From: Renibacterium salmoninarum ATCC 33209
Lineage (GTDB): Bacteria; Actinomycetota; Actinomycetes; Actinomycetales; Micrococcaceae
DNA length: 64,000 nt
Direction: 5' to 3'
Assembly (NCBI RefSeq): GCF_000018885.1
Contig: NC_010168.1
Coordinates: 2,728,001 to 2,792,000, forward strand
The notes below the pieces were generated by a model. That model worked only from the letters and a program-made list of their open reading frames with translations, searched no databases and was not told where the DNA came from. The position numbers were made by a program, and so were the translations under genes. This document shows, one piece after another, positions 8,552 through 47,701 of this stretch (position 1 is the stretch's first letter; each line of letters opens with the position of its first letter).

Positions 8552-10034
8552 ATGACTGATTCTCTCGTTTCGAATGATCCCAATGGGCCAGGCCCAAGCG
8601 GTACCGCTCAAGCTCCTCGGTCTCCGAAGAAGCAGGCGAGCCCCGGCAGTTGGGCAGACTTGCTCGGACCACAACATTTAGCCGCGGCATTGGTACTTGC
8701 TGGCGGCGTAGCGCTCTACGCGATGAACGTCTACGTCACTGCCGCGTTGATGCCATCGGCAATTTTAGAGATCGGCGGCAACGAATACTATGCCTGGGTC
8801 GCCACTTCGTTCTTGGCAGCTTCCGTTATTGCATCGATGTTAGTCAATCGGCTGCTTAGCTCGTTCGGGCCGTCAAAGGCCTATGTGATTGCCTTTCTGA
8901 TTTTTTCCGCAGGTTCTTTGATCAATGTGCTGAGCCCGAGCATGCAGATCTTCCTGCTGGGCCGGATCGTGCAAGGCTTCGGCGGTGGATTATTGGCTGG
9001 CCTTGGTTTCGCAGTGATCCGCTCGGCACTCCCCGCCCGCCTTTGGACTAGAGCAGCGGGTCTGGTCTCAGCCATGTGGGGTGTGGGGCGTCGGCAACCT
9101 CATTGGGCCAGCTTTGGGTGGCTTGTTCGCGCAGCTTGGTTGGTGGCGTGGTGCCTTCGGCTTACTCGTCGTCGTCGGCTTGGTCTTAGCTTTCCTCTCC
9201 AGAAGCGCTTTATCGCATCAAGCCGATGCGGGAACTCAACACCCGCCGCTACCGTGGCTGTCGCTTATCCTGCTCACGCTGGCAGCCGGTATGTTCAGCG
9301 TTACCTCGGTACTCCCCCGGGGTTTGTGGACCATCGGTGGGTTACTCGCTGGTGTTGCGCTGATGGTCGTCTTTGTGTTGCGAGATCGCACAGCAAGCAG
9401 CACCGTGTTGCCAAAATTTACCTATCTCAAAGGCAATAAGCTCAAATGGATTTACCTCACATTGGCTGCTTTGAGCGCGGGCGCAATGACCGAAGCTTTC
9501 ATTCCACTCTTTGGCCAGGAATTAGGCGGCCTCATGCCGTTGCTAGCCGGGTTCCTGGGCGCCGCACTATCGGTAGGTTGGACTATTTCGCAACTGTTCA
9601 GCGTCAATTTGGACTCCGCAAAGGCAAAGCGAGCCGTCCGACTACTGGGTCCGCTGCTGTTAGCTCTCGGTTTGCTGGCCTACGGCCTGCTAAAACAGCA
9701 ATCAGCGGATGGCTGGCTTGTGCTGCTTTGGGCGGCAATATTGTTTGTTTCCGGTGCCGGTATTGGTATGTCATTCCCGCACTTCAGCGTCGCCGCAATG
9801 AGCAGCACTGACGATGAAGAGGAAGGCCGCAAAGCCGCAGCGGGCATCAGCACTACTCAATTGATTGCCAATGCAGTTGCTTCAGCCTTTGCCAGAATCT
9901 TGGTCAACCTGGGTGCGCCGTCTGTAGTCGATTCAGCTCGCTATATGGCATTTGGCATCGCGGCCGTTGCGCTCCTTGGTGCCATCGCCTCCTTCGTTTC
10001 CCTCCGTCACTCGAAGCCCAACTCGAGCGTCTAA
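8552..10034 (+). pseudogene. SoxR-controlled MFS efflux transporter, frameshifted
   Basis: Drug-efflux-type MFS with about 12 helices. The first half runs to GLVSAMWGVG; the second half in a new frame continues WGVGNLIGPALGGLFAQLG to the end at 10034. The break is a 7-bp tandem duplication, TGTGGGG at 9075-9081 and 9082-9088; deleting one copy gives a continuous SAMWGVGNLIGPALGG. The promoter carries a SoxR box, so this was probably the redox-stress pump. Everything else is conserved, suggesting recent inactivation. Confidence 0.88.
9075..9088. repeat. 7-bp tandem duplication inactivating the MFS gene
   Basis: TGTGGGG twice in direct succession within the conserved motif A-like region; the net +7 shifts the frame. 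Confidence 0.85.
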
Positions 10035-10142: not shown

Positions 10143-11485
10143 TGAACCGTTACCGGTTTTATGCCGCTTCCTTTTGAGTTTGGAAGGAAGTATTGATGGT
10201 TATGAATCGGAAGTTTTCGCGGGAGGTTCGGGACAGGTCGGTGCGGCTGGTTTTGGATCATCTCCAGGAGTATCCATCGTTGATGGCTGCTTGTGCTGCT
10301 GTGGGCGGCAAAGTCGGGGTTGGGAAGGAATCCCTACGTCGTTGGGTGAGGCAGGCCTAAATTGATGCCGGGACCAGGGTAGGGATGTCCACGACGGAAT
10401 CGGAGCAGGTACGTGCGCTCAAACGTGAGAATCGTGAGCTGCGTGAGTCGTTAGAGATTGTGAAGGCTGCGTCGGTTTTCTTCGCGGGGGAACTCGACCC
10501 CCGCGAAGCATTGATCAGGGGATTCATCGATGAACAACGCTTCCTTGGCTGGGCAGTCGAGGTGATCTGCAAGGTCCTGCGTGGCCAGGGCTTAACGGTC
10601 ACTGCCCGGACCTACCGTAGTTGGAAGGTCTCCACCGCTTCGGTCCGGGACATGGCAGAGGCTTCGGTTATGGATGCGTTGCTAGGAACGGTAGGGACAC
10701 CGGAGGGAATGTACGGGAGGAGGAAAATGACGGCTTGGCTGCGTCGGAAAGGATTCGAGGTCTCTTACCGGCAGGTGAACCGGCTCATGAGCTTGTTGAG
10801 TTTGAAAGGCCGGGTACGGGGCAAAGGTGTGCGCACCACGGTGCCGGACCGAAACCATGACCGTGCCCCGGATTTATTGGATCGGTGCTTCACCGCAGCT
10901 GGCCCAAATCAGCGCTGGGTTGCGGACTTCACCTATGTGCGCACCTGGGCAGGTTTCGTCTATGTCGCGTTCATCATTGATTGTTTCTCCAAGTACATCG
11001 TGGGCTGGAACATCTCCACGATCAAGGACACCGCCCTGGTGAGCACAGCACTCAGGATGGGCTTATGGCAGCGGACACGCACCAGGCATCCGGTCGCAGA
11101 AGGGCTGATCCATCATTCCGCCGCCGGGTCCCAGTACACTTCCTTGCATTTCGGGGAAACCCTGACTCTGGAGGGCATCGCAGCATCAATCGGCTCTGTC
11201 GGGGACGCCTACGATAACGCCTTGGCCGAGTCCACCATCGGCCTGTTCAAGACTGAAGCCGTCCGAGAAGATTCTCCCTTCCGCAACGGGCCGTTGAAAA
11301 CCATCGATGAGGTTGAATGGGCCAGCTTGGCCTGGATCGATTGGTACAACAACGACCGCCTACACACCAGCATCGGAGACATCCCACCGACAGAACACGA
11401 AGTAGTGTATTACGCTAAAGAAACCATCCCGGCCCAACCGGTGCAGGGACTCGCATAAAAGCGGCAAGAAACCGGTAACGGTTCA
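10143..11485 (+). mobile_element. IS3-family insertion sequence (copy 1, inactive)
   Basis: 1,343 bp bounded by inverted repeats: left TGAACCGTTACCGGTTT from 10143, right ending 11485. About 25 of the outer 27 positions match. It encodes an IS3-type orfA/orfB transposase. No 3-4 bp target duplication is visible (flanks GGTCTC on the left, CAGTAC on the right), and the right end cuts the 3' end off an ABC permease gene, so a deletion or recombination probably occurred at this copy. Confidence 0.9.
10196..11458 (+). pseudogene. IS3-family transposase, orfA and orfB, multiply inactivated
   Basis: orfA starts at ATG 10196 (MVMNRKFSREVRDRSVRLVL) and is stopped by TAA at 10358-10360, where the related copy at 47.3 kb has Glu (RQAEID). 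Downstream, orfA and orfB lie in one frame instead of the usual -1 arrangement. An extra C in the C5 run at 10498-10502 would explain this; without it orfA would end ELDPAKH-stop. orfB has ADFTYV and the final Glu region (DNALAESTIGLFKTE), but the second catalytic Asp is Ala (HHSAAGSQYTS, codon 11120-11122; normally HHSDAGSQYTS). This copy cannot be a normal active transposase. Confidence 0.88.
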
Positions 11486-24501: not shown

Positions 24502-25789
24502 CTATTTAATGCCCGCCGACTGCATTGCGGTCTTGATGTCAGAAATCGCCGGATCCACTGATTTGTCACCCTTGAGCGCAGAGAATGCGTTGCTCTGGAT
24601 CGCCTTAGTGACTGCCGGGTAGAACGGCGTCACTGGACGCGGAACAGCGTTTTCGATCGAGGTCTTCAACGCCGGCAAGTAAGGCAGTTTTGCGGTCAAT
24701 TCCGGATCGTCGTAAAGCTTGCTCAGTACGGGAGCTGCAGATGCCTGCGTGACGTAAAGCTTCTGCATCTCTTCCCCGGTGACAAACTTGACGAAGTCCA
24801 GGGCGGTTGCTTTGTTCTTCGAATACACGCTCACACCCAAACTGTGCCCGCCAAGGGTAGATGCACCCGGACCGCTTGCGCCGGGCAGCGGGGCAACGCC
24901 AAAGTTGTCTTTGACCGTGCTGGTGCTGTCGGTAGTTGCCAGGTTGTAGACATAGGGCCAGTTGCGCAAGAAGAGCAGCTTGCCGTCTTCGAAGGACTGC
25001 CGTCCTTGTTCCTCTTGGTAGGTGATGGCCTGTTTCGGGATATTGCCATTCTTATAGGCGGTGGCCAAGTTCTCTAGGCCCGCTTTTGCCTTATCCGAGT
25101 CGATGGCTACTTTGCCGTCGTCGCCAATGATTTGGCCACCGGTAGAGTTGATCGCCTCCGCAGCGTTAACCGTCATAACCTTCGTACTGCGCGAATTGGC
25201 CGGCAAAGCAGTCAATGCCATTGGTCTTGGCAATTGAGCACATACTCATCATCTCGTCCCACGTTTTGGGCGGCGTGGGCACTAGATCTTTGCGGTAGTA
25301 AAGCAACGCACCGTCCGAGATCTGCGGTGCCGCGTAAAGCGTGTCCTTATAGGTTGCGCTCTTCACGGTTGCTGGCAGCATTGCGGAAGTATCCAGTGCC
25401 ATCTTATCTTTGAACGGCTGCAGCCAACCCTGTGCAGCAAATTCTGCGGTCCAAACTACGTCAACGCTCATCACGTCGTAATTCACGTTCTTCGTTTGAA
25501 GGTTTTTGACCATATCGTCGTGCTGTTGGTCGGCGTTGTCAGTAAGTTCTTTGAGGGTCACGATCTGGTCTGGATGCAGTGCATTCCATTTCGCCACGAT
25601 CGGTGCCGCGATGTTCGAGTTGTCTTTGCCTTGAACGTAGGTGATGGGGCCCCGACCGTCTAACCCGTTCTGCGCGTCGCCGCCTCCGCCAGCGGTTCCA
25701 CCGCCCCCGCTGCCGCCCCCACAAGCCGCCAGACTAACTGCTATGACGCCCACCGCGAGTGCGGGGGCAAGTGCTTTCGCAACCTTCAT
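24502..25789 (-). pseudogene. Sugar ABC substrate-binding lipoprotein, frameshifted
   Basis: The N-terminal part has a lipoprotein signal ending VSLAAC and a Gly-rich linker and runs to FAGQFAQYEG. The second part, in another frame, continues VNAAEAINSTGGQIIGDDG to the C-terminus. One extra T in GGTTATG (about 25176) accounts for the break (QYEGMTVNAAEA if removed). ATG 25789 is chosen for AGGAG eight bases upstream. First gene of the permease operon and divergent from the GH13 gene. Confidence 0.87.
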
Positions 25790-25897
25790 GCTGATACTCC
25801 TCATTGAGTCGTCCGAACCAGCAGCTCCTTGAACCTGTCCAAAACCTGGCCGGAATCTGTGAGATGCGTAGTTGAGTGATGCGGATCATCCTAGTAA

Positions 25898-27708
<1,811 letters not shown>

Positions 27709-37304: not shown

Positions 37305-37316
37305 GTGAATCGCATC

Positions 37317-38591
37317 ATGGTGATCTCAAGAGGGGATTCGAGCGCGGGGGACAGCCTCAAATCCACGGTTCCAGCACGACGTCGCGCTAGCAGTTCGGCA
37401 TTCCGTAAGACTTTACGTCTTGCCGCCATCACCGGAGCCACTGGCTCTGCGATCTTCCTCATTGGCGTACTCGGAGCACAGTCAGCCAATGCGGCCACTC
37501 CCGATTCCACGAGCGCAGCGTCGCAAAGTGCGTCGACAAGCGAAGGCCAAGGATCCGGCGGCCTATTAGGTGCCATCGGAAACACCCTGCAGGGTACGGT
37601 AAAAGTCCTAGAAAATTCGGTTGGCAGCCTCCTCGCACCCACCCCAGCCACTCCCCCGATGCACGAAGCGAAAATTTCCGGGCAACCTGCGGCAGCCGTC
37701 GCCACTGTGGCCTCCACAACACCCTCGGCGACGCTGTCCTCAACACCCTGGCCAACCGCGCCGAGCACGCTGATTCCAGCAGTTGACGACAAACCCGCAC
37801 TCAGCGCAGTGAAGCCAGTTTTGACCGGTGTGAGCGATGTGTTGTCGCCGGTTCTTACCCCAGTTACAAACACGATTCGGCCAGTAACTTCGACCACTCA
37901 GCCGCTCGTTGGCGGCCTAGTGAAAACAGTCACCGCGACTGTTCAAGGCGTCACGGGAACCTTGATTCCGACGGTAGAGAAACTTCCTATTTTGGGTCAG
38001 GTCCTCTCCCCGGTGATCAAAAGTTTGACGCCAACGCTGAACGGTTTGCTTCCGGAACTGACTTCAGATGTTCCGTTAGTCAAAGACCTAACCGGCTCGC
38101 TGACATCTCAAACGGGCGGGTTGCTGCCTACGGGTACTCCAAATCTGGTGCCGCCAGTAGCGCCCGCAACCCCCGTAAGCACGCCGCCGAGAGCACAGCC
38201 GCTAGCTCCCGCCGTCGAAACTGTAGTTGCGCCTTCGACGATTGTTGAGCCCGTTGCGGAGCTACCCGCAGCTGTTCTCGCGCACTCGTTTGTTCATCAG
38301 ATTTCCTCCTCCGCTATCTTCGCGTATGAGGTTCCCGTTTCGAATGAAGCAACTGGTTCAGCCCCGCAGGGCCCCTTGGCTCCGCAACCGATTGAACCTA
38401 TCGCAGCTCCCGCTAGTGGAACTTCCTCAGCGGGTAATGGCAGCAGCTCCGCCGGGTCCGGTGCGAGTGCGTCAGCCACATTGTCAGATATCTTCGCTAT
38501 GCCCATCAGCGTGCTCTCGGGAACCGTTGGCGTGCCCGCGCTAATCCTCCCTGAACCGCTGGCATACGACCCCGGATCATCTCCCGACTAA
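37317..38591 (+). CDS. Secreted Ala/Pro/Thr-rich surface protein
   Basis: About 424 aa. A basic N-terminus and hydrophobic core (AIFLIGVLGAQSANA) form a signal peptide cut after ANA. The mature part is low-complexity with amphipathic motifs such as GGLLGAIGNTLQGTVKVLEN, SPVLTPVTNTIRPVTSTTQP and GGLVKTVTATVQGVTGTLIP. There is no sorting signal or cysteine cluster. ATG 37317 (GAGGGGGTG upstream) is preferred to GTG 37305. It sits 100 bp before the LPSTG repeat protein, and the two may act together at the cell surface. Function unknown. Confidence 0.75.
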   Translation: MVISRGDSSAGDSLKSTVPARRRASSSAFRKTLRLAAITGATGSAIFLIGVLGAQSANAATPDSTSAASQSASTSEGQGSGGLLGAIGNTLQGTVKVLENSVGSLLAPTPATPPMHEAKISGQPAAAVATVASTTPSATLSSTPWPTAPSTLIPAVDDKPALSAVKPVLTGVSDVLSPVLTPVTNTIRPVTSTTQPLVGGLVKTVTATVQGVTGTLIPTVEKLPILGQVLSPVIKSLTPTLNGLLPELTSDVPLVKDLTGSLTSQTGGLLPTGTPNLVPPVAPATPVSTPPRAQPLAPAVETVVAPSTIVEPVAELPAAVLAHSFVHQISSSAIFAYEVPVSNEATGSAPQGPLAPQPIEPIAAPASGTSSAGNGSSSAGSGASASATLSDIFAMPISVLSGTVGVPALILPEPLAYDPGSSPD

Positions 38592-38691: not shown

Positions 38692-41600
38692 ATGCGACCG
38701 TGCTTACGCAGGACCCTGTGGGGATCCTTGTTTACCGGAGGCATCATTGTCCTCGGCGCTGCCGCAGCTAATGCTGCAGAGCAGCCACCTACTGATGGAG
38801 CGAATAACTTAGCAAGCACCACTTCGGCGCCTGCTACCTCGGCACCAGCATCGGGATTGAAAATCAATATCCCGGTCAACCTGTCGGGTAACGCAATTAG
38901 CGTTATCGGTAACTCGACAGCTAACGGGCCAACTGCTCCAAGCGCACCTGCAAATGATGGGTCGATCAATCTTCCGATCAATCTTAGCGGGCACGCAATC
39001 AGTCTCCTCGGGACCGGAAACCAGGCAAAACCTGGTACCGCTCCCGCGGCGAATGCCGCGCCACAAGTCGGCTCGACGGTACTTGGTACCTCGACCCTCG
39101 GCGGGCTTCTCCCAGGTCTAGAACAAATAGTTAGCATCAATGTTCCGATCGCCCTCAGCGGTAATGCCTTGAGCGTGATCGGCTATTCCGACGCAACGTC
39201 GGTTGCTCCGGCAGCCGGCCCCGCCCCGACGTCGCCTACTACCGGATCCAAGGTAGATGGCGACACGATTGGGCAGGCAACATCAGGCGGTCTCGGTGTT
39301 TTCAACGGTTGTCAAGCAGTTGCTAACGCGAATGCGCCAGTCACTGTTTCTGGCAATGCGGTGTCATTGATCGGCAACTCCAAGTCAAACGGCTCACAGG
39401 TAGGCGCCAATGGCGCTCCTGGGGCTGGCGGCGGGGCGTTGACCGGCGGTGACGTGGTTGGTCAGACCACTTCAGGTGGGGTTGGTGCATTCAACGGCAA
39501 CACCGCTAACGCGGATGCTGCTGCGCCGATCACAGTGTCCGGAAATGCTATTTCTGCAATCGGTAACTCGAAGACGAAGAACTCCCAGGTCGGCGGCGGA
39601 CCCGCTAACGGCAATGGTTCTTTGAGTGGCGGAGACACCGTCGGCCAAGCAACTGCAGGCGGAGTTGGTGCGTACAACGGCAACGTGGCCAACGCCAACG
39701 CCAAAGCACCGGTAACGGTGTCTGGCAACGGCGTCTCGCTGCTGGGCAACTCGAGTTCTGAAAACTCCAAGGTAGGTGTTCCGAACCCGGCTGCGACCGG
39801 TAATGGCGCCCTAGCCGGTGGAGATTCCGTACATCAGGCAAGTGGTGGCGGTATTGGTGCGTACAACGGCAACCAGGCTCAGGCCAACGCCGACGCACCA
39901 ATCACCGTATCGGGCAACGCCATTGGCCTAACCGGAAACGCCGCATCGAAGAACTCCACCGTTGGTGGCGCTCAGACGGTTCCCGGCGTTGGAAACGGCT
40001 CATTGGCCGGCGGCAATAGCAACGACATGGTGACTGCAGGTGGCATCGGCCGCTTCGTCGGTAACCAAGCTGACGCTAATGCCAAGGCTCCGTTGACCAT
40101 TTCCGGTAACGCGATCAGCGCTTGCGACGCCGAGTCTAACGATTCGACCGTTGGTGGCGGCACTCCTGGTATCGGCGCACTCGCGGGCGGTGACCGCGTT
40201 GGGCAGGCAACTGCTGGCGGCATCGGCGAGTACAACGGCAACCAGTCTGTAGCCAACGCCAAGGCTCCGATCACGATCTCCGGTAACGCCATCTCGGGTC
40301 TTTCGACTGCCCGTTCCAACCACTCAGTTGTGGGCGGTAACGGCATCGGTAACGGTAACGTAGGCAACGGATCACTGGCTGGTTGAAACACCACCGGACA
40401 AGCTACTCAAGGTGGCATCGGCGAGTACAACGGCAACACTGCCGACGCCAATGCTAAAGCTCCTGTGACGGTGTCGGGCAACGCCATCTCGGTGCTTAAC
40501 CAAGCACAAACCGACAACTCGCTGGTTGGCGGCTCGACGACGTCGGGCAGTAACGGCGCGATGGCCGGCTGCGATTCCGTTGGGCAGGCAACTGCTGGTG
40601 GTGTGGGTGCATGGAATGGCAACCAAGCGGTGGCAGATGCCAAAGCTCCGTTGATCATCTCCGGTAACTCGATTTCCGGTCTGGATGATTCAGAGTCCAA
40701 GGGCTCGGTTGTTGGTGGCACCACCGGTGGCAACACCGGTGGCAACACCGGTTCATTGGTAGGCAGCGACAGCACCAGCCAAGCTACCGGCGGTGGCGTG
40801 GGAGCCTTCAATGGCAACCAAGCTGTAGCTAACGCTAAGGCTCCGATCCTCATCTCCGGCAATGCGATCTCCGCAGTGCGGCCGTCCCAGTCCACGAACT
40901 CTGTGGTTGGCACCTCCGCAATCAACGGTTCGCTTGCAGGCGGTGACACCACCGGTCAGGCAACTGCTGGCGGCGTCGGTGCATTCAATGTCAACCAGGC
41001 AGTGGCAAACGCCAAGGCTCCGATCGTCGTCGCGAACAACGCCGTTTCTGGCTTGGGCGAGGCAACCTCGAAGGATTCCTTGGTTGGAGCTAGCACTGGA
41101 TTGGCGACTGGAAACAACGTACAGCAAGCTAGCACGGGCGGCGTCGGCGCATTTGCTGGTAACAACGCTTCGGCTAGCGCTAAGCTGGTTCCGGTTTGGT
41201 GCGACAACCAAGTGAACCCGCTCGCGGGTGCAATCGCTGGTGCTTGCAAGGTTGGTTCGGTTCTGAACCCAGCTACCCCGGTTCTTCCGGGAGTTCCTGG
41301 ATTCGGTGGCGATCCACTTCAGATTGCTACTCCGGATCCGATCGGCAGCATCTTGCCAATCAAGGGCGGTTCGCTGGATTCGGTTATCCGGTCCATGCTT
41401 CCTGAAATTCCGGCTGTTCCGGCGATCAACGGCTCCGGCCCAGTTCCTTCGACTGACGGCACCCCCGTTGTTCCTGGAGCTCCGGTTGTTCCGACCGATC
41501 CTCGGGCAATCGACCTGGGTAAGGTAGTCAACGGCCTACTCCTGGGCACGCCAGGCGTCGTCGGACAGATCACTCGTCCGATCCTGCCGAGCATTCCTCC

Positions 41601-43005
41601 GGTAACTGCAGTTCCGACGCAGCCCACCGATACCACCACTGTTCCTACCGTGCCCACCACTGTTCCGGCTGCGCCGGGCCTTGGCATCATCGGACAGCTC
41701 ACTGGTGGTCTCCTGGGCCAACGTCCCGTTCCGGCTTTGCCGGTCGGCGGTTCACCGGTTGGAGTCGGCTTGCCGACCCTGCCTGGCGTGCCGGTACTGT
41801 TCCCGGTTGGTCCGATTGGACCGCTTGTAAGCAATATTGGTCAGACCCTTCCGGGCCTAGATGACGTTGCCAACTTGATCCCAAGCCTCGGAAACATTGG
41901 GGGGCTGGGGAACTTGGGTGGCACCATCAAGGGGCTGGTTCCGACGCTGCCGAAGATTTGTGATCTGACCTGCAACGGCGGATTGGGCGATCTGGGCAAA
42001 GTCATTGGAGGCCTATTACCGAATATCCCTGGTACGCCCGGCACCCCAGGACTGCCAACCCTCCCGGGTCTTCCCGACCTGGGCGGTTTGTCCGGTACCG
42101 GCACCCCCGGAACCAACCTGCCAGGCCTGCCCAGCATCGGCGGAGTCCTTACCGGTCTTCCGGTCATTGGCGGACTATTCGGCAGCGGCACCCCTGGAAC
42201 TACCGTCCCCTGCTTGTCCGGCCTCGGTGGTTTGCTCGGCGGGGTGTTGCTGGGAAAAGCTGTAGGACCTCTTGATCTTGGCAAAGTCATTGGCAGTATT
42301 CCTGCCGCCGGCGATGCGCTAAAGACCATTGGGTCCGTGCCGGTAGTTGGCAATATCGTACAAAGCCTGCCGGTTATCGGCGGCGTGTTTCAAGGCAGCG
42401 CCCCTGTTCCAGGCCAACCTGGAACACCGGCACTGCCGGGTCTCGGCGATCTCGGCGATCTCGGCGATCTCGGCAAAACGATCCAAGGGCTGCCCGTCCT
42501 CGGTTCAGTTGCCAATTTGTTGAAAGACCTCCCATTGATTGGTGGTGTTCTGAACGCCTTGCTGGGCGCAACCCCGCAAGGTCCAGGCACCAACCCTGGA
42601 ACGAATCCGGGCACTAATCCCGGAAACAATCCAGGAACGAACCCTGGCGGCAATCCAGGTACCAACCCCGGTACTGTTCCGGGGAATGGGCCCGGCTCCA
42701 ACGACACCGGGGCTCCGGGCGTCAATGGGGTCGGCAATATCGGATCCAGCGGTCTGGGTACCGGAGTGGGCGGAAGTTACTCCCCGTCAAACCTGGTAGC
42801 CGGAACCGCAATGACGATCTATCGGGTATCCGGTAGCTCCGTGGAGTTTGGTTCATTGGCAAAGGTGGCCAAACTCCCGAGCACCGGTGCCGCAGATTCG
42901 TCCTTGGCCGGTATTGGAATGGGCACGCTTGCACAGCGAGCAATGCTGCTGGCATTGCTCGCTGTGAGCAAACCTAAAAAAGTAGGCCAGCCGGCAACGC
43001 GCTAG
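38692..43005 (+). pseudogene. Giant LPSTG-anchored repeat surface protein, one internal TGA
   Basis: 1,437 codons if the TGA at 40384-40386 is read through; the neighbouring repeats have Gly there (GSLAGG). Order: signal peptide (GIIVLGAAAANAAE); three loose LSGNAIS-type units; about ten tandem 59-65-residue repeats built on TVSGNAIS..GNS and GGD.VGQATAGGVGA.NGN; a Cys-containing end unit (WCDNQVNPLAGAIAGACK); a long Pro/Gly/Leu region with TPGTPGLPTLPGLPDLGG-like motifs; PGTN repeats; and LPSTGA followed by a weak hydrophobic stretch and a basic tail. Sortase substrate. The GN-rich repeats recall chaplin-like units. As written, only a 564-aa secreted fragment without the anchor would be made. 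Confidence 0.82.
39349..41034 (+). repeat. Tandem 177-195 bp coding repeats in the surface protein
   Basis: The SGNA codons recur at 39349, 39538, 39721, 39910, 40102, 40279, 40474, 40660 and 40855, with a diverged unit at 41032, giving 59-65 aa spacings. Units differ in a hypervariable S..S.VGG.. insert but keep the SGN and GQAT.GG.GA.NGN cores. Confidence 0.85.
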
Positions 43006-43017
43006 CCTGCAAGGAAT

Positions 43018-43055
43018 GGCGGGGCTGCTTCTCACTGGGCGGCCCCGCCTTTTCC
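43018..43055 (+). terminator. Terminator after the LPSTG gene
   Basis: GGCGGGGC, 16-base loop, GCCCCGCC followed by TTTTCC, 13 bp past the stop at 43005. Confidence 0.8.
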
Positions 43056-46358: not shown

Positions 46359-47701
46359 ATCGCCCCGGTGTGTCCGGAGGGTTTCTCAGACGATGAGCCT
46401 GTCGGCGGCTGCCGTGCTCTGGTAGTGATTGTAGTAGTGGTTTTCTAGCTCTACTGGTGGGATGTCTCCGCAGTACTGGTAGAGCCTTCGGTGGTTGTAC
46501 CAATCGACCCATTCAGCGGTGCCGATTTCGACTTCTTCTAGAGTCCGCCAGGGCTTGCCGGGTTTGATCAGCTCGGTCTTATAAAGCCCGTTGATGGTTT
46601 CCGCCAAGACGTTGTCGTAACTATCACCCACAGAACCGATCGAGGGGCGGATACCGGCCTGGGCCAGGCGTTCGGTGAAGGCCAAGGAGGCGTATTGAGC
46701 CCCGGCATCGTGATGATGAATCACCCCGGAAATCTCAGCCCCGGCCCGTTCACGACTCCAGATTGCCTGATTAACTGCGTTGAGCACTAGCACGGTGTTC
46801 ATAGAAGCACTCGCTGACCAGCCCAGGATCCTCCGAGAGTAAGCATCGATCACGAAGGCAACATAGACCCACCCGGACCAGGTCGAAACATAGGTGAAAT
46901 CAGCTACCCATAGCCGATCCGGTGCCGTTGGTGTGAAATCACGGCGGACCAAGTCCTTCGCTCGGGCCGCCTTCGAGTCTTTGATCGTGGTGCGTTTGAC
47001 CTTGCCACGGACCGCACCCTGTATGCCAAGTAACCCCATGAGCCGTTCTACCGTGCACCTGGCCACCGGCACACCTTCACGGTTCATCGCCAACCAGACT
47101 TTCCTGGTGCCGTACACCCCGTAATTAGCGGCATACACCTTCTGGATCACGGGCTTGAGCACCTCATCACGTTGTTCTCGGTGAGATCGTGTTTTATCCA
47201 CCCATTCGTAGTACGTGGACGGGGTGGTCTTCACCCCGTCCCAGTAAGCACCTGGCAGATCGACTCGACACCCCACCGCAATCCATTATTCTCGCGGTGA
47301 CCGGCATGGTCCTTGATGTATTTCACGATCAGTGTTGTGGCGGTCGAGTTCGACCGCGAAAAAAGCTGAAGCACTCCGAAGGATCGCGTTCGCCCGTTTC
47401 AGCTCAGCGTTCTCACGCCGTAACCGTTTCAGCTCGGCCGATTCCGTGCTCGTTGTTCCAGTTCTAGTACCAACATCGATCTCGGCTTGCCGGACCCATT
47501 TACGCACCGTTTCCGGCACACCCACACCCAAAAGCTGGGCAACTTTTTGCATCGCCGCCCACTCCGAAGATGCACCCTCCATCTCCGCCACCATGCGCAC
47601 CGTACGATCCTTCAACTCCTGCGGATACCGTGTCGTAGTTTTCCCTGCCATGTCCTGATCCTCTCAAACAAGAAAGTCTCCGGACACACCGGGGCGATTC
47701 A
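46356..47701 (-). mobile_element. IS3-family insertion sequence (copy 2)
   Basis: 1,346 bp with perfect terminal inverted repeats of at least 23 bp; each end begins TGAATCGCCCCGGTGTGT. Different from copy 1 in both ends and protein. No 3-4 bp target duplication is visible (CAC on the left, CCC on the right), so the flanks may have been rearranged after insertion. Confidence 0.92.
46386..47651 (-). pseudogene. IS3-family transposase orfA + orfB, frame damaged
   Basis: orfA (47286-47651) has the HTH and a leucine-zipper-like LKRLRRENAELKRANAILR and passes the slippery TTTTTTC into ELDRHNTD, where relatives end ELDRPQH. orfB has ADFTYV, HHHDAGAQY and VLAETINGLYKTE, so the D-D-E residues are intact. 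But its first 30 residues (IVKYIKDHAGHRENNGLRWG, ESICQVLT) lie in a different frame from 47276 onward. Two single-base deletions (a C near 47340, a G near 47226) would restore the usual -1 frameshift arrangement. Confidence 0.82.

What the first reader, a model, noticed from the sequence alone, without database searches (positions are those of the whole stretch)
38692..43005. Giant LPSTG surface repeat protein with a single TGA in repeat six or seven
Signal peptide, about ten 59-65-aa SGNAIS/GQATAGGVGAxNGN repeats, a Cys-bearing cap, Pro/Gly-rich stalk, PGTN repeats and an LPSTG sorting signal, all in one frame except one TGA (40384-40386) in a Gly codon context. The repeats look like a beta-solenoid or chaplin-like amyloid unit. 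If the TGA is fixed, the cell would secrete a 564-aa unanchored repeat fragment. If it varies, it could be a phase or strain switch of a major surface fibre.
Basis: partly seen in the sequence, partly recalled or inferred. Interest (0 to 1): 0.75.

Follow-up and report, generated by a model that had tools for sequence, protein, structure and literature searches.

The report
Stop-broken giant chaplin-like surface protein
A giant wall-anchored surface protein built of chaplin-like repeats, whole in close relatives, is cut short by a stop codon in the salmon kidney-disease bacterium, apparently as part of the general decay of that genome; the repeat-protein family itself is the more interesting part.

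Summary
Window 38692-43005 is one frame (signal peptide, 11 regular 59-65-aa repeats, a Cys pair, Pro/Gly stalk, PGTN repeats, LPSTG) interrupted once by TGA at 40384-40386. The genome is Renibacterium salmoninarum ATCC 33209 by size. Three distinct related sequences carry the gene as one ORF of 1678-2158 aa. Another sequence, one residue different, ends at the same stop, so sequencing error is unlikely. dN/dS is low in the repeats on both sides (0.041, 0.067) and high only in the last 304 codons (0.44, poorly alignable), so the stop looks recent. Five of 12 neighbouring genes tested are also broken. Best reading: a young nonsense pseudogene, leaving at most a secreted, unanchored 564-aa fragment. 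The repeats are chaplin-like (GN-GN spacing of 13) but lack the Cys pair and third GN motif. LAXTG signals in relatives and a class E sortase place the intact protein beside Streptomyces long chaplins. A phase switch and selenocysteine are not supported.

The parts
37305..38591 (+). Companion gene: 428-aa predicted secreted Pro-rich protein, genus-restricted in the genomes searched, directly upstream
   Evidence: match in 5 of 59 genomes, all in the same genus (5 of the 7 of that genus); in all 5 it lies beside the repeat gene (gaps about 55-100 nt); no Pfam or NCBIfam match above cut-off
38692..40386 (+). N-terminal half: signal peptide and 7 regular chaplin-like repeats, ends at the in-frame TGA (564 aa)
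   Evidence: PF03777 23.1 bits; dN/dS 0.041 against L001
38692..38775 (+). Signal peptide (by eye, MRPCLRR...AANA)
   Evidence: Sequence; helix at residues 3-27 in the model; no signal-peptide program was run
40384..40386 (+). In-frame TGA stop in the linker after the seventh regular repeat core
   Evidence: aligned codon is a sense codon in L001 and G006; the same end in P0002
40387..43005 (+). C-terminal half: 4 more repeats, Cys pair, Pro/Gly stalk, PGTN repeats and sorting signal; downstream of the stop, no signal peptide of its own
   Evidence: dN/dS against L001: whole half 0.176, its repeats 0.067, first part of the stalk 0.058, last 304 aligned codons 0.444
42874..42888 (+). LPSTG sorting motif (LASTG in the full-length relatives), followed by a hydrophobic stretch and a basic tail
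   Evidence: LAXTG in 76 of 95 homologues, LPXTG in 1, neither in 18
43018..43049 (+). Terminator-like hairpin after the C-terminal half
   Evidence: 13 pairs, 10 G-C, then TTTTC; the scan as a whole found no more sites than shuffles (7 against 6.6)

Best explanation
The gene once encoded a giant, probably well expressed, wall-anchored surface protein: exported by its signal peptide, fixed to peptidoglycan by the class E sortase at an LAXTG-type signal, and projecting a stack of chaplin-like beta repeats on a Pro/Gly stalk (hydrophobic or adhesive coat; function inferred). In R. salmoninarum one nonsense mutation ended the frame in the seventh repeat unit. The anchor, stalk and four repeats are no longer made, so the intact surface protein is lost; at most an unanchored 564-aa repeat fragment is exported. 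It is a recent pseudogene in a genome that is shedding genes. Shown: the stop, uninterrupted relatives, synteny, a second sequence with the same end, constraint in the repeats on both sides, broken neighbours, a class E sortase in the genome. Inferred: export and wall anchoring of the intact form, its function, the fate of the fragment.
For: Uninterrupted ORFs in relatives: 1739 aa in L001 (same contig as G004), 1678 aa P0001, 2158 aa G006, with the same companion upstream in L001 and G006 and, in L001, the same downstream SDR. P0002: 563 of 564 identical, same end. dN/dS against L001: N half 0.041 (0.028-0.058), C repeats 0.067 (0.038-0.103), first part of the stalk 0.058 (0.032-0.088). Of 12 neighbouring L001 genes searched in the window, 5 are broken by stop, frameshift or deletion, 2 not found, 5 open. 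TGA ends 5 of 16 window ORFs that I picked, so it is an ordinary stop. Published section: many IS elements and pseudogenes in this genome (PMC3364575 section 10, read in full).
Against: The C half has no second lesion in 872 codons, and its repeats show no clear relaxation, which read-through or an intact allele elsewhere would also give. Taken whole, the C half has dN/dS 0.176 (0.143-0.218), above the N half, because its last 304 aligned codons reach 0.444 (0.333-0.587); that stretch is low-complexity and poorly alignable, so it may be either old relaxation or alignment noise. Only one other sequence with the stop could be inspected; the other members of its cluster (5 in all) were not seen. 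No expression data.
Confidence: 0.82

Rival explanations
1. The truncated protein is a retained, useful product: loss of the anchor turned a wall-bound chaplin-like coat into a secreted, self-assembling repeat protein.
For: The N half keeps signal peptide and seven repeats, with dN/dS 0.041. P0003, from another Renibacterium-like lineage on a 36-kb contig, departs from the family frame two residues before the window's stop position, which would be a second truncation at nearly the same place.
Against: The constraint is that of the whole divergence, not of the time since the stop. P0003 may be an assembly error, and its predicted start lies after the signal peptide. Neighbouring genes are broken in the same way.
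Confidence: 0.1
2. The TGA is read through at some rate, so that a little full-length anchored protein is made.
For: No clear relaxation in the repeats and no second lesion downstream; the strong terminator-like hairpin sits after the C half (one weak + strand site, 5 pairs, lies inside it at 40693-40706).
Against: Relatives have a sense codon there, so no conserved recoding; no SelA in the genome while E. coli and M. jannaschii rang; a recent stop explains the same facts; dN/dS of the whole C half is higher than of the N half.
Confidence: 0.05
3. The site is a phase or strain switch: intact and truncated alleles coexist in the species.
For: The relatives are intact, and only two R. salmoninarum sequences could be compared.
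Against: No repeat tract at the site; the second sequence has the same end; no intact allele of the expected length found in 5.8 billion proteins (which scored only the 7990 and 7993 candidates sharing most words); very low diversity of the species (PMC3960531 passages).
Confidence: 0.04
4. Sequencing error in the reference.
For: A single in-frame stop in a repetitive gene.
Against: P0002 differs by one residue and ends at the same place, so it is not a copy of the reference.
Confidence: 0.03

Closest known systems
Streptomyces long chaplins ChpA-C (chaplin domain, PF03777)
   Same: Secreted; chaplin-like domains with two GN motifs 13 residues apart; LAXTG sorting signal in the relatives; class E sortase. 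PMC13251363 (passages) gives three GN motifs spaced 12-13 residues and GN at turns between strands; PMC5148588 (passages) gives LAXTG and SrtE1/SrtE2 for ChpA-C.
   Different: 11-13 regular domains instead of two; no domain Cys pair; third GN motif absent (0 of 10 window cores); long Pro/Gly stalk; Micrococcaceae, not a streptomycete.
LAXTG multi-chaplin proteins of Microbacteriaceae and other actinobacteria (some annotated 'chaplin family' or 'beta strand repeat-containing')
   Same: Same repeat core, similar N-terminal signal (GG..LGA..A.A), LAXTG end in most; 94 proteins at E <= 1e-3 (P0002 and P0003 included), 72 of them with precomputed PF03777.
   Different: 312-769 aa in a search that admits only 0.55-1.75 times the query length; local identity to the window N half 28-45% apart from P0002 and P0003; the Renibacterium full-length form is 1678-2158 aa and paired with its own companion gene.
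CwpA/CwpB of Actinoplanes missouriensis
   Same: SrtE-dependent, hydrophobic, large disordered parts with clusters of beta-sheets (PMC13251363 passages).
   Different: The authors conclude they have no chaplin domains.
Curli subunit CsgA (8c50)

Membership tests
Chaplin domain (PF03777) | Score over Pfam's cut-off (21 bits) | tested here: inconclusive
   Window N half 23.1 bits; C half no match; intact L001 and G006 and the same-genus G005 (L024) and G003 (L025) no match at E <= 1; P0003 18.1, below the cut-off; homologues P0005 70.5, P0023 60.9, P0004 45.8, L026 71.2, L028 62.0, L027 31.0 bits
Chaplin domain (PF03777) | GN motifs spaced 12-13 residues | tested here: met
   First-to-second spacing is 13 in 8 of the 10 window cores that the script found, and in 346 of 364 cores of 88 homologues with a relaxed first motif
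Chaplin domain (PF03777) | Third GN motif | tested here: not met
   0 of 10 window cores; 2 of 364 homologue cores; best Pfam stretches end at profile position 45-46 of 57
Chaplin domain (PF03777) | Two cysteines per domain (ChpB C-terminal domain is a published exception) | tested here: not met
   No Cys pair in any window repeat; 69 of 92 homologues have no Cys at all; G036 holds both kinds of repeat in one protein
Chaplin domain (PF03777) | Amyloid assembly and surface activity | not testable with these tools
   Needs purified protein
Class E sortase substrate | LAXTG motif, hydrophobic stretch, basic tail | tested here: not met
   Window copy reads LPSTG with hydrophobic stretch and basic tail; intact relatives LASTG; LAXTG in 76 of 95 homologues
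Class E sortase substrate | A class E sortase in the genome | tested here: met
   The only PF04203 match in the genome scores 246.8 bits for class_E_sortase NF033747, cut-off 160
Pseudogene by nonsense mutation | Uninterrupted orthologues in the same gene order | tested here: met
Pseudogene by nonsense mutation | No functional product | not testable with these tools
   Fate of the 564-aa fragment unknown
Stop-codon recoding (selenocysteine or programmed read-through) | The stop conserved in relatives; selenocysteine genes present | tested here: not met
   Sense codon in L001 and G006; no SelA (PF03841) in the genome
Phase-variable gene | Unstable tract at the switch site | tested here: not met
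   Longest run within 30 bases of the stop is 3

The most novel reading that the evidence does not exclude
Loss of the wall anchor was selected: during adaptation to life inside fish cells, a giant wall-bound chaplin-like coat became a secreted, self-assembling seven-repeat protein, and a related lineage (P0003) made the same cut independently within a few codons.
Probability: 0.08. Interest if true: 0.65.

Novelty: new variant of a known kind. Interest (0 to 1): 0.36.

Why it matters
The stop itself looks like ordinary decay in a host-restricted pathogen. The intact protein is more telling: a chaplin-like coat protein with 13 regular cysteine-pair-free units and a class E type sorting signal in Micrococcaceae, strongly conserved in its repeats and with somewhat adapted codons, so chaplin-type surface layers may serve something other than aerial growth. 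Its loss in an intracellular fish pathogen gives a natural before-and-after comparison of what such a coat is for.

Tried and rejected
Considered and rejected: sequencing error (P0002); separate genes; selenocysteine and reassigned TGA (TGA ends 5 of 16 window ORFs picked by me, one of the 16 being the C half itself, which ends in another stop); phase variation by slippage; recent transfer as the reason for low dS: giant dS 0.73-0.79, companion 1.39, LacI-like 2.7, SDR and GH15-like saturated (all against L001), 15 ribosomal-operon genes 0.345 pooled (against G006; 15 of 22 ORFs taken, the other 7 without a partner); codon bias is a simpler reason (z 3.3 for the N half, 6.0 for the C repeats, 2.2 for the rest of the C half, but also 2.6 for an unrelated binding protein; companion -2.4).

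Corrections: the homologue counts read rows with alignment gaps and were redone; the codon reference set held three ORFs that are not ribosomal; one search repeats the index without them (N half 0.571, C repeats 0.685, rest of the C half 0.531, companion 0.472), not the z-scores.

Full report
What it is and where. The window is 2728001-2792000 of a 3,155,250-base single-contig genome. PMC13274415 gives exactly this size for Renibacterium salmoninarum ATCC 33209 (passage), the agent of bacterial kidney disease of salmonids; the nearest named relative found is a Renibacterium MAG. Because this is a pathogen of animals, the broken gene was handled as two pieces.

The observation. Searches confirm the frame, the single TGA at 40384-40386, seven regular repeat cores before and four after it, the Cys pair, the stalk, the PGTN repeats, LPSTG and a terminator-like hairpin after the C half. 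Between the companion gene and this gene the scan lists one terminator-like site, on the - strand (38621-38605), and none on the + strand, so the two may be co-transcribed.

Relatives. A scan of genome contigs found one relative, L001, Renibacterium sp. RGIG571 from a cow duodenum, with a single 1739-aa ORF between the same companion and the same SDR. The whole-genome search of 59 genomes found matches to the N half in 9, own genome included: besides G000, four of the six others of the genus (G003-G006) and four of the remaining 52 (G030, G034, G036, G052). G004 (the L001 contig) and G006 are uninterrupted; G006 reads 2158 aa. G003 and G005 have shorter LAXTG-type versions, 474 and 708 aa. P0001 (1678 aa) is a third full-length sequence, of the L001 type. 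L001, G006 and P0001 have the same 13 regular cores with the same spacing; L001 and G006 differ by 419 alignment columns, so the length difference lies outside the regular repeats. Two units present in L001 are missing from the window copy (11 against 13 cores).

Is the stop real? The 564-aa cluster P0002 (5 members) has a representative identical to the window N half in 563 of 564 residues. It is therefore another sequence that stops at the same place. I could not see the other members. The C-half ORF as a query found no predicted protein but P0002 (7993 candidates scored).

How old is the stop? Against L001, dN/dS is 0.041 before it, 0.067 in the repeats after it, 0.058 in the first part of the stalk; these intervals overlap. 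The C half as a whole gives 0.176 (0.143-0.218), because its last 304 aligned codons give 0.444 (0.333-0.587); that stretch is low-complexity with many gaps, so I do not lean on it, but it does not support constraint there. If the repeats after the stop had evolved freely for long, their ratio would have climbed; a rough upper bound from their interval, worked by hand, is about 6-7% of the pairwise path. The neighbours tell the same story: of 12 L001 genes looked for, the permease is reduced to a C-terminal remnant in more than one frame, the DinB-like gene (near its end), the O-methyltransferase-like and the TetR-like gene hold one stop each, the spermidine-synthase-like gene is in two frames, two genes were not found, and companion, SDR, DoxX-like (130 of 187 residues matched), GH15-like and LacI-like are open (gene names by eye from the sequences). 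Matched stretches of broken neighbours are 48-90% identical to L001, those of open ones 51-84%, which fits recent breakage.

What the intact protein is. The N half passes the chaplin model PF03777 narrowly; the C half, the full-length L001 and G006 proteins and the same-genus G005 and G003 proteins do not match it, while more distant homologues pass it clearly (72 of 94 carry it). PMC13251363 (passages) describes the chaplin domain as three GN motifs spaced 12-13 residues with two cysteines, GN at the turns between strands. In the window, 8 of 10 cores have a GN exactly 13 residues before the core GN; none has the third GN or a cysteine pair. In 364 cores from 88 homologues the spacing holds in 346 (relaxed first motif) and the third GN appears in 2. 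G036 carries both cysteine-bearing and SGN-type repeats in one protein, which links the two forms. The model of the N half puts up to four short strands in each of the first repeats, with turns at GN, AP, GN and G-N, with block pLDDT 70-91 in the first six cores and under 50 in most linkers and from residue 490 on. I call the units chaplin-like and do not file them as chaplins, since two defining features were not met.

Anchoring. LAXTG is in the last 60 residues of 76 of 95 homologues, LPXTG in 1, neither in 18 (the 95 are P0001-P0095, fragments included). The genome's only PF04203 match is a class E sortase. PMC5148588 (passages) reports that class E sortases anchor ChpA-C through LAXTG. The window copy reads LPSTG; whether its sortase would accept that is untested. 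Sortase inhibition reduced adhesion and invasion in R. salmoninarum, and eight targets had been proposed, three of them seen by proteomics (PMC8863785 passages); I could not tell whether this locus is among the eight.

Expression. Codon adaptation is above expectation in the C repeats (z 6.0) and mildly in the N half (z 3.3), where an unrelated binding protein gives 2.6, and synonymous divergence lies between ribosomal genes and ordinary neighbours: the ancestor was probably well expressed (inference).

Verdict. A recent nonsense pseudogene of a giant, chaplin-like, class-E-sortase-type surface protein. The switch hypothesis is not supported. The best lead against the ordinary reading is P0003, whose tail resembles a shifted frame of L001 beginning within a few codons of the window's stop; with one protein (source code 'lgn', which I take from recall to be an assembled-read collection) and no DNA it stays a lead. 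The odds given for the explanations are not exclusive: a decaying gene can still be leaky or leave a product.

Noticed in passing
P0003 (519 aa): A Renibacterium-like protein from an assembled contig leaves the family frame two residues before the position of the window's stop, and its predicted start lies after the signal peptide: possible parallel truncation or assembly error.
   Followed up: partly
window 37305-38591; L001:5017-6402; loci L031-L035: The companion secreted protein ends in DPGSSPD in window, L001 and G005, was found only in this genus (5 of its 7 genomes, 5 of 59 in all) and sits about 55-100 nt upstream of the repeat gene; it diverges much faster (dN 0.44) than the N half and C repeats (dN 0.03-0.05).
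   Followed up: partly
L001:6501-11720, L023:5273-11749, P0001: Near-identical repeat arrays but very different total lengths (1739, 2158, 1678 aa), apparently from copy-number change of Pro/Gly units in the stalk.
   Followed up: partly
window N-half residue 207, C-half residues 62 and 609: Three cysteines found only in the window copy, none at these places in L001, G006 or P0001.
   Followed up: no
L027:5087-7588 (G036): One protein holding both cysteine-pair and cysteine-free chaplin-like repeats, a natural intermediate.
   Followed up: no
window 10385-11458 and 46386-47276: Two transposase-like ORFs (DDE type, by eye), one next to the stop-bearing TetR-like remnant.
   Followed up: no
window 8552-10034, 24502-25804, 26276-27708: Overlapping ORF pairs that look like single genes split by frameshifts (MFS transporter, binding protein, glycosidase, by eye).
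   Followed up: no
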